NCBI GenBank assembly: GCA_023539395.1
Contig: JAKCEX010000009.1
Span: 1-38,647, forward strand
Source: Candidatus Geocrenenecus arthurdayi
Lineage (GTDB): Archaea > Thermoproteota > Nitrososphaeria_A > Caldarchaeales > Wolframiiraptoraceae
Direction: 5' to 3'
DNA: 38,647 nt
Shown: positions 1-18,978 of the stretch, piece by piece
How the letters are laid out: each line of letters begins with the position of its first letter
How positions within the stretch are numbered: the first letter of the stretch is position 1
Notes under the pieces: generated by a model
Seen by the model: only the letters and a program-made list of their open reading frames with translations
Databases searched by the model: none
What the model was told of the DNA's origin: nothing
Position numbers and translations under genes: made by a program

Positions 1-1995
1 GCTGTATTGAAGCTTGTTCCAAATGGTGGTTATTATCTTATTGCTAAGCTAGGAGAGTATGAAGTCTATCGCTCAGAAGAGAAAATTGTTAAAGTAATGA
101 ATGCTGACTGGGAAGCTTCCATAACTGCTCAAGTCGTAAGATTAAATATTACAGTATACGATTTTGATGGTGAAGCTATCATCTCAGGTCTTGGAGCTGA
201 GCTCACAGGAGAAATAAGAGATAATCAGAATAGGCTTGTATCGACAGCCTCAACTCCGGAGGGAGAATTAAGGTTCGGCTATGTACCTCTTGGGAAATTC
301 AAGCTGAACGTTTTCATCGCTGGAATTGATGTTTATTCTCAAGAATATGAAATAAACGAGCAAACTGCTAAGGGAAGTATTAGAGCAAGATTCTTTGATG
401 CTGAGTTAACAATTGATGGGTCTTCTCTCGTAAACTCAACTATAACTAGGTATCTAAAAGGAGTTTTAAAGAAAGATGTTCTAGAAATACCCTTAGACTT
501 CTCGGATGGGTATATGTCTCTGGAAAATGTGCCTGCTTATAGTGGATACTTAGTTAAGCTTTACTACAGAGAATACGAGGTAGCAGAGACAAAGATCGAT
601 ATCACGAGAGAAGGAGAAGAAATATCTATGAAGATAAGAGGAAAGAATGTAACTATAAACACTCTAAACATGTATGACAAGCCTTTATCAGCTGAGATAA
701 AAATTTACCTTGAAAATGGTGATGAATATTTCAAATTCAAGACTGATAATTCTGGTTTAGGAAAGATAGGTGAGCTCCTATCCATAAAATATAAATTCAA
801 AGCATATATTATGGGTGTTGAATGCGGTGAAGTAGATGTCCAACCTCAAGCTTCAGAGTCATATACAATGAAGCTGAATGTTGGAAATGCCTACATTAAA
901 CTGTATGATAAAGACCGAGAATCAACTATCCCAGATGCATTGATAGAATTATATGTAGAAAAATCGAAAGCAAGCAGTATGACGAATTCTTCTGGGATTG
1001 CTTCCTTCGAGAATATACCCTATACAAGATACCTGTATAGAGTATACATGTATGGTTTTAAAGTTGGAGAAGGAGAAGCAAATATAGGCTTCGACAGGCA
1101 GATAGTAGAAGTAATTGCACATGGAATTTTAGATTTAAGATTAACTATCGTAGATAGTGAAAAACAACCAATAGACGGAGGGAAGATAATCATAACAGTC
1201 GGAGACAAAGAGATAACAGCAAATATAGATCAGAATGGTCAAGCTAGAATAACTAACCTTCCAAATACAACCCTTTATATCGGTGGCTTATACTACAAAG
1301 ATGTAAAAGTAAAGACGGATACTCGTGAAATATATCTAGTTAGTGATGAAATGCCTATAACAATCAGTGCAAACATCTATACATTACAGGCTTCTGTAAA
1401 ATTGAAAACGGGTGAATTAATGAAGTTTGGAGAAGTTAATATATATGTAGGTGGCAAGAAAACCTCAAGGATTACCCTCTCAGAGAACAACCCGTTTAGT
1501 GAGAGGCTTCCAGGAGGGGAATTAATGATAGAAGTAGTATTCAAGAATACTAAGGTTGCATCCAAGAGTTTCACATTAGATGCATCGAAAGAATTACCGA
1601 TACAAGCTGATGTATACAGGTTTGTAAGCATTTTCTACAATACTCTTGGTGAAAGATTGAAGGGGCTGAGTCTAAGGCTGGAACGTGAGAATACTCTAAT
1701 AGAAGAATTAGAAACGGATGAGAACGGAATGGTAGATACCTACTTACCCGGAGGGGACTATAAGATTAAAATAAGCTATGGTGATGATGAGTATAGTTCT
1801 TCTATTAAGATAAGCAATACAACTCAATTGAGCTTTATGCTTCCAATACAAGTATTTAATCCGATTATCATAATGTTCCTCCCACTAATAAATGCAGTAA
1901 TAATCTCCCTATATTTCATAGGAAAGCTTAAAACTAGAAGTCCCCATCGAAAGAAGAAACCTATGAAAACGATTAGAAAAGTACTAAAGATATAG
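1..1995 (+). CDS. Repetitive beta-sandwich surface protein with C-terminal membrane anchor (5' partial)
   Basis: The frame is open from the left edge; the first possible start is TTG at 7, but no signal peptide follows, so the gene very probably begins outside the window. The visible ~660 residues consist of about seven diverged repeats of 75-90 residues, each with a pattern like 'V.D....PI.GA.I.V......T+..G.+...LP.G.Y...V.Y', which resembles carboxypeptidase-regulatory or CNA-B-like folds. Near the end lies one hydrophobic segment (about residues 618-640) followed by a Lys/Arg-rich tail of about 20 residues, as expected for an exported protein anchored by its C-terminus. Repeat units recur in the order: variable strand, T-D-x-N/S-G turn, 'LP/VP' turn, aromatic strand. 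The signal peptidase gene follows after 3 bases, so the two are probably co-transcribed. No enzymatic motif is visible; a cell-surface or stalk role is inference. Confidence 0.6.
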   Translation, partial: AVLKLVPNGGYYLIAKLGEYEVYRSEEKIVKVMNADWEASITAQVVRLNITVYDFDGEAIISGLGAELTGEIRDNQNRLVSTASTPEGELRFGYVPLGKFKLNVFIAGIDVYSQEYEINEQTAKGSIRARFFDAELTIDGSSLVNSTITRYLKGVLKKDVLEIPLDFSDGYMSLENVPAYSGYLVKLYYREYEVAETKIDITREGEEISMKIRGKNVTINTLNMYDKPLSAEIKIYLENGDEYFKFKTDNSGLGKIGELLSIKYKFKAYIMGVECGEVDVQPQASESYTMKLNVGNAYIKLYDKDRESTIPDALIELYVEKSKASSMTNSSGIASFENIPYTRYLYRVYMYGFKVGEGEANIGFDRQIVEVIAHGILDLRLTIVDSEKQPIDGGKIIITVGDKEITANIDQNGQARITNLPNTTLYIGGLYYKDVKVKTDTREIYLVSDEMPITISANIYTLQASVKLKTGELMKFGEVNIYVGGKKTSRITLSENNPFSERLPGGELMIEVVFKNTKVASKSFTLDASKELPIQADVYRFVSIFYNTLGERLKGLSLRLERENTLIEELETDENGMVDTYLPGGDYKIKISYGDDEYSSSIKISNTTQLSFMLPIQVFNPIIIMFLPLINAVIISLYFIGKLKTRSPHRKKKPMKTIRKVLKI

Positions 1996-15906: not shown

Positions 15907-16653
15907 TTGTCAAGATATTTTGATAGAGTTTCTACAGGTGTCCCAAGGCTTGACCAGATGCTGGGTGGCGGGTTAATTAGAGGTAGAACATATCTTGTAA
16001 CTGGTGAGACAGGTGTAGGCAAGACAATACTAAGTCTACAATTCATCTTGGAGGGTTTAAGACAGAATGAACATGCAATTTATGTATCTCTAGATGAAAG
16101 GATTGATGGAGTACTTAATGGAGCATTATCTCTTGGATGGGATTTATGGGAGTACATACAGATGGGGTTATTCCATCCATTTGAATTTAGGTTGTTTACA
16201 TCAGATTTAAAGAGGTTTGGAAAAGAGAGCAGAGCATTCGTAGAAGCAATAGAGAAGATCGCACAGGGGAGATCAATCAGTAGGATCGTCTTAGACCCTA
16301 TATCTGCACTAGCTTTAGGAGCAAGAGAAGAATTCATCGTAAGAGAATACTTGAGAGAGATTATAAATATGCTTGAAGAAAAAATGGGTGCAACAACACT
16401 TCTCACATGTGATGTACCAACAGCTTCAAAGAAATTAAGCAGATTCGGTTTCGAAGAATTCTTATCATCAGGAGTAATAGTTCTAGGTGTAGTAAGATTT
16501 AGAGGTAAGCTCTTGAAGACAATCTACGTAAGAAAGATGCGTTGGTCTATGGCTGACTCAGCAATATACACTTTTGAGATAAGACCGGGAGAAGGAATAG
16601 TCATAAAAGAACCACTCTCCGAACACATTGACACAGCATCACTAGAACTCTAG
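15907..16653 (+). CDS. KaiC-like RecA-superfamily ATPase (single domain)
   Basis: One KaiC/RecA-type ATPase domain: 'STGVPRLDQMLGGGL' (9-23), Walker A TGETGVGKT (32-40), 'AIYVSLDER' (57-65), Walker B-type 'ISRIVLDPISAL' near 125-136 and the terminal strand 'TIYVRKMRW' with 'Y.F.I.PGEGI'. Archaea carry many such proteins, probably in signalling or DNA-related roles; no specific role can be assigned. Start TTG 15907 has GGTAGAG before it and a TATA-like ATTATATTAAA near 15862. Distance to GGGPS is 93 bases with its own promoter. Confidence 0.82.
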   Translation: MSRYFDRVSTGVPRLDQMLGGGLIRGRTYLVTGETGVGKTILSLQFILEGLRQNEHAIYVSLDERIDGVLNGALSLGWDLWEYIQMGLFHPFEFRLFTSDLKRFGKESRAFVEAIEKIAQGRSISRIVLDPISALALGAREEFIVREYLREIINMLEEKMGATTLLTCDVPTASKKLSRFGFEEFLSSGVIVLGVVRFRGKLLKTIYVRKMRWSMADSAIYTFEIRPGEGIVIKEPLSEHIDTASLEL

Positions 16654-16748
16654 ACTCCCATATAATGTCCTATCTCCTAATCTCTAATTTCTGATAGGAA
16701 ATTATGTTAGATAATAAAATTTTAATAACATGGGGATAAGAAGATTTA

Positions 16749-17888
16749 ATGTGGAGTCTGTGCAAGAACATGTTTACAAAAACCCATGTTGAAAACTTTT
16801 TAAGCCTTAGAAATGTTGACATAGAATTAAAGAAGACAAATATCTTCATAGGACCGAACACAAGCGGGAAAAGCAATATTGCAAAAGTTTTCCAACTAAT
16901 AGCTAGAAATGCAAGAGATGGAATACCAGTTTTAGAAGGTTACAAGGAGTTTAAGGATATATCTTTTAGTTTTAACCCAGCCGCGAAAATAAATATCACG
17001 TTAGAAGTATCTATAAAAGGGGTCAAATGGAGGTATATCCTCGAATTATCTAAAGAGAAATATTCCGAGCATATATATAGGGCTGATGAACTAGTTATGA
17101 GACATGATGGTGACCTTGGCACGATATATATTCATGCTAAAGGTCATACAGCAATCGGGTCAACAGGGCAAGTCTCAGCTGCATACTATGGTAGAAACAT
17201 TTACAAAAGTATACTGACCTCCCTACCCTTAGATATAGAGGCAGAAGGTCAATATTTAGCGTTTTGTTTAAAAAATATCTCTGCTCATTCGTTCAGCCCT
17301 ACTTTTCTTCGTCTTGAAAATCCTGTTAATGAAAAACCTTTATTGAAATATCACGGGGAAAACCTGGCTCGCTACTTACTTTATCTGTATACAGAGAGAC
17401 GGAAAGATTTCAGACGTATTGAAGAAACTCTACAGAGGATGGTTCCGGAAGTTGAGGAGATTACCCCACATATAGAAGGGACTAATGTTGAGATATGGAT
17501 TAGGGTGAAAGGTTTAGATGAACCTTTGAAGCCTCATAATATCTCTGACGGTACTCTAAGGATTCTTGCGATGATCAGCGCTTTACATGGTGGGTTTAGT
17601 CTTGTGGTTTTAGAAGAACCTGAGAACTGTATACACCCTTATTTACTTGAGACCCTGATGGACTTAGTTAGAAATTCTCCATCTCAAGTTGTTATAACCA
17701 CACACTCACCCTATCTATTAGATCACGCTAAACCAGAAGAAGTCTTCTTAGTAGAAAAAGAGGGCCTAGAAACTAAAGTGAAAATGTTATCCACTACCGA
17801 GGAGATGAACCGTGTGAAGTTGTTTTTAGAGGAAGGTGGTACATTAGGTGAAGCATGGTATTCTGGAATAATAGGTGGAATACCGTGA
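16749..17888 (+). CDS. ABC/OLD-type AAA ATPase, first gene of an ATPase-Toprim module
   Basis: A compact SMC/RecF-like ATPase of 379 residues: N-terminal 'VENFLSLRNVDIEL', Walker A GPNTSGKSN (35-43), signature-like 'ISDGTLRILAM' (about 268), Walker B 'LVVLEEPENCIHP' (about 288) and H-loop 'VVITTHSPYLLDH'. Such AAA_21-type ATPases drive OLD, PARIS and AbiL/RloAB-type defence systems when paired with a Toprim protein. Here the stop overlaps the GTG start of a Toprim/DUF4276-like gene by 3 bases (GTGA), matching that arrangement. ATG 16749 is at leaderless distance from an AATAAAATTTTAATA element. The ATPase reads intact. Confidence 0.85.
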   Translation: MWSLCKNMFTKTHVENFLSLRNVDIELKKTNIFIGPNTSGKSNIAKVFQLIARNARDGIPVLEGYKEFKDISFSFNPAAKINITLEVSIKGVKWRYILELSKEKYSEHIYRADELVMRHDGDLGTIYIHAKGHTAIGSTGQVSAAYYGRNIYKSILTSLPLDIEAEGQYLAFCLKNISAHSFSPTFLRLENPVNEKPLLKYHGENLARYLLYLYTERRKDFRRIEETLQRMVPEVEEITPHIEGTNVEIWIRVKGLDEPLKPHNISDGTLRILAMISALHGGFSLVVLEEPENCIHPYLLETLMDLVRNSPSQVVITTHSPYLLDHAKPEEVFLVEKEGLETKVKMLSTTEEMNRVKLFLEEGGTLGEAWYSGIIGGIP

Positions 17889-18406
17889 ATTCCATTTTAG
17901 TAATAGTTGAAGGCACAACTGATATAGGTTTTATTGAAGGAATCACAGAGAGACTACAAGTTACATGTAGAGTACATTTAATGAGAGGGAATAGACCAGA
18001 AAAAGCTAGCCGTATCCTAGTAGCTTTGCAGGGAGAATTTGAGAGAGCTATTGTACTCAAAGACCTTCATAGAGAAGGTAGGAATAGGGTTGCCCTCATA
18101 CATAAGTTAACTGATAAGGCTAAACAGCTAGAGAAGCAAGGATTAAGATTACATATTATTACTATTAAGTGGGGTATAGAATCATAGATTCTTGCAGGTC
18201 TATCGGTAAACAATCCAGAGGAGATTTTAGATCCAGAAGAAGAGCTTAAAAGATTAATGAAGATGAAAGGTGAGCAATTTGTTAAAAGTCGTGAGCTCTA
18301 CAGGAAATTAGCAAGAGAAATTGTGGACATCAAAAAAGCTATGATAAAGTCAGAAAGTTTTAGAAATTTCATAAAAATTCTTACCACTATAGAAGACTTC
18401 ACTTAA
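17885..18406 (+). pseudogene. Toprim/DUF4276 (RloB-like) partner of the ATPase, interrupted by in-frame TAG
   Basis: GTG 17885 gives MNSILVIVEGTTDIGFIEGI, a Toprim glutamate motif, then 'RAIVLKDLHREGRN', where the usual DxD reads DLH. The frame is stopped by TAG at 18185-18187 (codon 101) in 'KWGIES-TAG-ILAGL' and then stays open to TAA 18406 with sensible protein (residues 102-173, 'ILDPEEELKRLMKMKG', a helical tail ending 'SFRNFIKIL'). DUF4276/RloB-type proteins have Trp here (E-A/S-W-L/I-L-A), so a TGG-to-TAG change explains it. Full length would be 173 residues. As read, only the N-terminal 100 residues are made, unless the codon is suppressed or the base is a sequence error. Confidence 0.7.
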
Positions 18407-18447
18407 CGTCTATAGTTAATTCATAAACTGTAAATATTCTTGGGACC

Positions 18448-18494
18448 TGTAGAAATTAAAAGTGAATGAACTACGGACGTTGTAGAAATTAAAA
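18448..18494. repeat. Two-copy direct repeat TGTAGAAATTAAAA
   Basis: TGTAGAAATTAAAA occurs at 18448-18461 and again at 18481-18494, period 33, each preceded by GGAC within a few bases. It lies in the 200-base gap 18407-18606 behind the broken ATPase-Toprim module, where no other structure or gene is evident. It could be a regulatory pair or a remnant of a repeat-flanked insertion. Confidence 0.45.
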
Positions 18495-18606
18495 TGAGCC
18501 AATGTAATGGTTAAGCTGTGTTTTCCTGTGATCTATGATATAATTGTGGAGTAGGTTGGATATAGATAAATCATAGTCCGTTCACAATTAGAGTTGAGAT
18601 GAGAGA

Positions 18607-18978
18607 ATGGGTTTAACAATTTTAGAGAGGGAGGCCATAAAAAACAAGGTTATAGAGGTCTTGAAGAATGTTTATGATCCAGAGATTCCAGTGAACGTTT
18701 ATGATTTAGGACTAATATATGGCATCAATGTAGATGAAGAAGGTAGAGTAAATATAGAGATGACTTTAACTGCTCCTGGATGCCCAATAGCTGGAATGGT
18801 CATAGCATCTACAGAATCAGCCATTAGGGAAAAAGTAACTGAAGCAAAAGAAGTCTACGTAAATCTTGTATGGGATCCTCCGTGGACACCCCTAAGAGTA
18901 ACACCTGAGGGACGTGAAGCTCTAAAGAAACTATTAGGATACGACCTAGTAGAAGAGTGGATAAAAGCTACTTCTTAG
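18607..18978 (+). CDS. MIP18/DUF59 family iron-sulfur assembly protein
   Basis: The DUF59 signature is complete: 'VYDPEIPVNVYDLGLIYGI' (20-40), 'VNIEMTLTAPGCPIAGMV' with the conserved Cys in TxPGCP, and 'VYVNLVWDPPWTPLRVTPEGREAL'. Family members (SufT, PaaD, MIP18/CIAO2) help insert or mature Fe-S clusters. The C-terminus is extended slightly with 'LGYDLVEEWIK'. ATG 18607 follows GAGATGAGAG. It is 190 bases ahead of polD large subunit, whose C-terminal cysteine modules may be metal clients; that connection is speculation. Confidence 0.88.
   Translation: MGLTILEREAIKNKVIEVLKNVYDPEIPVNVYDLGLIYGINVDEEGRVNIEMTLTAPGCPIAGMVIASTESAIREKVTEAKEVYVNLVWDPPWTPLRVTPEGREALKKLLGYDLVEEWIKATS

What the first reader, a model, noticed from the sequence alone, without database searches (positions are those of the whole stretch)
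16749..18406. ATPase + Toprim/DUF4276 module, probable defence pair, with a TGG-to-TAG break in the effector
The sequence shows an intact ABC/OLD-type ATPase overlapping a Toprim-motif gene by 3 bases, as in OLD/PARIS/AbiL-RloAB-like systems. The second gene has a single in-frame TAG at 18185 exactly where DUF4276/RloB-type proteins carry Trp (E-S-x-I-L-A), and the downstream 72 codons are still clean. The DxD reads DLH. Inactivation of a toxic effector while its ATPase is intact would be a snapshot of defence-system loss; or it is suppression, or a base error.
Basis: partly seen in the sequence, partly recalled or inferred. Interest (0 to 1): 0.7.

Follow-up and report, generated by a model that had tools for sequence, protein, structure and literature searches.

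The report
Archaeal defence pair with broken effector
An archaeon has picked up a two-gene antiviral-type cassette (an ATPase next to a nuclease-like gene) whose nuclease gene is cut short by a stop codon; relatives carry intact copies, and several other archaea have broken the same gene independently while keeping the ATPase, so this is a mostly ordinary example of a costly defence gene being lost.

Summary
An intact ABC-type ATPase gene (16749-17888; likely start 16770) overlaps a Toprim/RloB/DUF4276-like gene (17885-18406). The second gene has one in-frame TAG at codon 101 (18185-18187), followed by 72 open codons that still encode the conserved C-terminal half. Orthologues with the same gene order have Trp there; E99 and W101 are invariant in 11 relatives. 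The joined 173-residue protein folds confidently as one domain (pLDDT 89.5), and its best structural match is an RloB-like protein. The pair is an insertion: four same-genus genomes have the flanking genes side by side. TAG is an ordinary stop here (13 of 32 window genes). No pyrrolysine system or CUA tRNA was found, and no other window gene has an internal stop relative to relatives, so recoding is unlikely. A single-base assembly error cannot be excluded without reads. The same gene is broken by different lesions in about five other archaeal loci, nearly always with an open ATPase, which supports recurrent effector loss and argues against programmed read-through.

The parts
16749..17888 (+). 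ABC/OLD-type ATPase gene (AAA_21; Walker A GPNTSGKS, Walker B LVVLEEPE, H-loop TTHS); probable true start ATG 16770
   Evidence: orthologues 62% (L004) and 47% (L006) begin at the residue corresponding to 16770
17885..18406 (+). Toprim/RloB/DUF4276-like effector gene, 173 codons if the TAG is passed; broken
18185..18187 (+). in-frame TAG stop at codon 101, where all aligned relatives carry Trp
18188..18403 (+). 72 open codons after the stop; conserved C-terminal helical half of the effector
16654..18555 (.). approximate extent of the inserted cassette between a KaiC-type gene (15907-16653) and a DUF59/FeS_assembly_P gene (18607-18978), adjacent to each other in four same-genus genomes

Best explanation
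A two-gene ATPase + Toprim-like nuclease cassette was inserted between two housekeeping genes of this archaeon, and its effector was then inactivated by a nonsense mutation at a conserved Trp codon. By analogy with PARIS and other ABC ATPase + Toprim systems, the ATPase would be the sensor that holds the effector inactive, and the effector a nuclease that shuts the cell down on viral infection. In this genome only the first 100 residues can be made: the N-terminal alpha/beta part without the E-x-W helix and the C-terminal helices, so the system is most likely non-functional. Shown: gene anatomy, lesion, insertion, intact orthologues, recurrent lesions in relatives. Inferred: defence function, toxicity of the effector, non-function of the truncated product.
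For: Intact orthologues with the same gene order and Trp at codon 101. E9, D60, E99 and W101 invariant in 11 sequences. Post-stop residues fold at pLDDT mostly above 90 as an integral part of one domain; best structural hit RloB-like, TM 0.61. ATPase matches defence ATPase models HEC-01A 9.5e-48, AriA, AbiLi, MAD3. Empty site in four same-genus genomes. TAG is an ordinary stop (13/32), and about 28 other window genes show no internal stop or frameshift against two relatives. Independent lesions of the same gene with the ATPase open: G116 nonsense, G104 frameshift plus nonsense, L006 658-bp deletion, G372 core deletion, G374 frameshift. In G104/G116 the ATPase shows dN/dS 0.74, excess nonsynonymous change against flanking genes (Fisher p 0.018), as expected if the system is decaying there.
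Against: Reads were not available, so one base in a draft assembly could be wrong. No measured defence activity for this clade. The window protein on its own does not reach the Pfam DUF4276 cut-off. The C-terminal half stays open and conserved, so the lesion is either very recent or the protein is still partly used. Cran1, a single-gene archaeal OLD protein, has a cell-cycle role rather than antiviral function (PMC12796447), so 'defence' is not certain for archaeal ATPase-Toprim proteins.
Confidence: 0.77

Rival explanations
1. The TAG is a sequencing or assembly error and the effector is intact in the living organism.
For: Draft assembly of 82 contigs; single-codon difference; all other codons of the effector look functional.
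Against: About 28 other conserved genes of the window carry no spurious stop or frameshift, so the error rate is low; the same gene is broken, twice by more than one lesion or by a long deletion, in other genomes.
Confidence: 0.12
2. The stop is read through (suppressor tRNA, pyrrolysine or programmed recoding) and full-length effector is made.
For: Downstream frame is open and conserved.
Against: PylS matches all far below the cut-off; no CUA anticodon among about 43 tRNA genes located, although tRNA-Trp itself was not found, so the list is incomplete; TAG ends 13 of 32 window genes; the stop is not at a conserved position, since relatives have different stops and deletions at other places.
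Confidence: 0.03
3. The 100-residue product, or the C-terminal part as a separate ORF, is a working shortened component, or the ATPase has a separate role without its partner.
For: C-terminal half stays open after lesions in the window, G104, G116 and G372; G116/G104 dN/dS is 0.27 in the C half and 1.62 in the N half, but this is not significant (p 0.18); the archaeal single-gene OLD protein Cran1 works in the cell cycle, where its ATPase activity appears critical but not its nuclease activity (PMC12796447).
Against: None of the intact orthologues ends at residue 100; truncation removes the invariant W101 and the C-terminal helices; the ATPase itself looks relaxed in G104/G116; the pair is absent from the rest of the genus.
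Confidence: 0.08

Closest known systems
HEC-01 (PADLOC candidate defence pair)
   Same: Adjacent ATPase + small Toprim/DUF4276-type gene; ATPase matches HEC-01A at 9.5e-48 over its whole length.
   Different: Effector matches HEC-01 models only weakly (6e-5 to 3e-4), carries a stop, and belongs to an archaeal clade with D-x-H in place of D-x-D.
PARIS (AriA/AriB)
   Same: Two-gene split: AAA_21 ABC ATPase (AriA model 1e-30) plus Toprim-like effector; likely the same working principle of sensor and sequestered nuclease (PMC12409363).
   Different: No AriB match at all.
MADS module MAD3-MAD4
   Same: Both genes have their best NCBIfam hit to the MADS proteins MAD3 and MAD4 (2.6e-28 and 2.7e-4).
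   Different: Far below equivalog cut-offs (99 of 420 bits; 21 of 160 bits); no other MADS genes seen beside the pair.
RloA/RloB, DUF4276 and OLD-family Toprim proteins
   Same: Best viral-structure match is an RloB-like protein, TM 0.61; DUF4276 hits 4 and RloB hits 3 of 11 aligned relatives.
   Different: Window protein itself is below every Pfam cut-off.

Membership tests
HEC-01 | HEC-01A-type ATPase | tested here: met
   PDLC04182 9.5e-48, residues 10-375; PADLOC's own thresholds not available
HEC-01 | HEC-01B-type partner next to it | tested here: inconclusive
   weak hits 6e-5 to 3e-4 for the joined protein; L004 partner 1.3e-5; adjacency met
DUF4276 (PF14103) | score above Pfam gathering cut-off (30.2 bits) | tested here: not met
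   no hit for the window protein; L004 20.8 bits, L005 20.4 bits; 4 of 11 wider relatives hit, best 4e-15
RloB-like fold | overall fold | tested here: met
   AlphaFold model pLDDT 89.5; top BFVD hit RloB-like, E 2.9e-4, TM 0.61; no significant match among solved structures
Toprim nuclease | N-terminal Glu and D-x-D acids | tested here: inconclusive
   E9 and D60 invariant; the second Asp is His in the close clade (DLH), Asp or Glu in the distant relatives; Pfam Toprim 14 bits of 23
PARIS | AriB-type Toprim partner | tested here: not met
   no AriB model hit
MADS | MAD3 and MAD4 above equivalog cut-offs | tested here: not met
   99.3 of 420 and 21.1 of 160 bits
Antiviral defence system | protection of cells from a virus | not testable with these tools
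   needs experiment

The most novel reading that the evidence does not exclude
In this archaeal clade the Toprim effector is preferentially and repeatedly discarded while the ATPase (and perhaps the C-terminal effector fragment) is kept because it does something useful without the nuclease, such as dominant interference or a housekeeping role like Cran1.
Probability: 0.08. Interest if true: 0.55.

Novelty: new member of a known kind. Interest (0 to 1): 0.33.

Why it matters
It is a clear example of a horizontally gained two-gene defence-type cassette losing its effector, together with a small comparative series of independent lesions in the same gene. Such series suggest that the effector carries a cost and that these systems turn over by effector loss first. 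It also extends the split ATPase + RloB/DUF4276 class to several deep archaeal lineages, where defence systems are poorly known.

Tried and rejected
Recoding or pyrrolysine: PylS search and tRNA survey negative. A second in-frame TAG in the first gene of the window (7-1995 with 190 codons to the next stop) turned out to be a normal end followed by a signal-peptidase-like gene (gene identity read from the sequence; both parts are separate, intact ORFs in relatives). Plasmid collection: no relatives. Solved structures: no significant fold or sequence match for the effector. The 14-nt repeat after the effector is not a genome-wide element: two copies only. Literature: no held paper mentions DUF4276; one mentions HEC-01. 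dN/dS on the window-L004 pair was not attempted because they are too diverged (62% ATPase protein identity).

Full report
The pair is real. The window holds an intact ATPase ORF at 16749-17888 (379 codons) that matches AAA_21 at 4e-30. Orthologues begin at the Met encoded at 16770, so the first seven codons are probably not used. The next gene starts at GTG 17885, overlapping the ATPase stop by 4 bases, and would run 173 codons to TAA 18404-18406, but has one TAG at codon 101.

Relatives show what should be there. A genome-contig scan found a Bathyarchaeota locus (L004) with the same two genes in the same order (ATPase 62%, effector 54% identical) and two Methanodesulfokora loci (L005, L006). 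All intact effectors have Trp at codon 101. In an alignment of 11 archaeal relatives E9, D60, E99, W101, P117, L121 and K134 are invariant. It is a clade trait, not damage.

The part after the stop is genuine protein. It is 61% identical to L004, against 47% before the stop. An AlphaFold model of the joined protein has mean pLDDT 89.5 and pTM 0.86, with the post-stop helices mostly above 90 except at the C-terminal end. Its best viral structural match is an RloB-like protein (TM 0.61). No solved structure matched significantly.

Family. The ATPase matches PADLOC HEC-01A models best (9.5e-48), then AriA, AbiLi and MAD3. The effector is only weakly recognised in the window (HEC-01 6e-5, MAD4 2e-4), but family members hit DUF4276 (best 4e-15) and RloB (best 2e-8). 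So the pair belongs to the broad class of ABC ATPase + Toprim-like effector systems, which includes PARIS, AbiL and MADS (PMC12409363). In PARIS the AriA hexamer senses phage proteins and releases the tRNA-cleaving AriB (PMC12409363). That mechanism is borrowed here as the most likely one; it was not tested.

The cassette is an insertion. In four same-genus genomes the KaiC-type gene and the DUF59 gene are direct neighbours with about 55-205 bp between them, and the ATPase-effector pair is absent. The window has about 1.95 kb there.

Is the stop read? TAG ends 13 of 32 window genes, including the KaiC and PolD DP2 genes. No window gene with an orthologue in G001 or G004 contains an internal stop or frameshift; stops printed there lie in extensions beyond the gene ends or in antisense frames. 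PylS was not found: the best hit has 19 bits against a 178-bit cut-off. Of about 43 tRNA genes found, none has a CUA anticodon, reading intron-containing ones by eye. The set is incomplete; tRNA-Trp was not found.

The same gene is broken elsewhere. A phylum-wide search and follow-ups gave 23 loci, counting the window and the three genome-contig loci. Fourteen have both genes open. Six have a broken effector with an open ATPase: the window; G116 (TGA at codon 43); G104 (1-nt deletion plus TGA at codon 47; its ATPase runs off the contig); L006 (658 bp missing relative to L005); G372 (in-frame loss of the Toprim core); and G374 (frameshift in a 67%-complete assembly). One (G354, 76% complete) has a frameshifted ATPase, one (G181) is a remnant of both, and one (L005) is cut by the contig end. 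If lesions fell by length, effector-only in at least six of seven would have p about 0.005. This is rough: the loci are few, two are sister species, and single frameshifts in drafts may be errors. The search began from the effector, which biases against finding effector losses.

Selection in G116/G104. The ATPase has dN/dS 0.74 (25.5 nonsynonymous, 9.5 synonymous), against 0.10, 0.84, 0.33 and 0.15 for flanking genes (pooled comparison p 0.018). That fits decay of the whole system, not retention of the ATPase for its own sake. The C half of the effector looks more constrained than the N half, but not significantly (p 0.18).

Conclusion. A base error remains possible without reads. The biology is of a known kind and interest is moderate to low.

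Noticed in passing
L006:5980-6210 versus L005:107-577: Two contigs of one Methanodesulfokora washburnensis assembly carry the same locus, about 97% alike, one with an intact effector and one with 658 bp missing from within the effector into the intergenic region.
   Followed up: yes
L100:3950-4245 (G372): Effector reduced to about 93 residues by an in-frame loss of the Toprim core, directly after an open ATPase; a second ATPase + partner pair lies just upstream (L100:5795-7601).
   Followed up: partly
window 18448-18461 and 18481-18494: 14-nt direct repeat TGTAGAAATTAAAA, two copies 33 bp apart near the right edge of the inserted cassette and nowhere else in the genome.
   Followed up: partly
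L066:2-400 (G000:C22): 5' part of a second, different AAA_21-type ATPase of the same genome, cut by the contig end; its partner cannot be seen.
   Followed up: no
G000 tRNA genes: More than half of the tRNA genes found carry introns, some at unusual positions (for example a tRNA-Lys with an insert in the D-arm region, L033).
   Followed up: no
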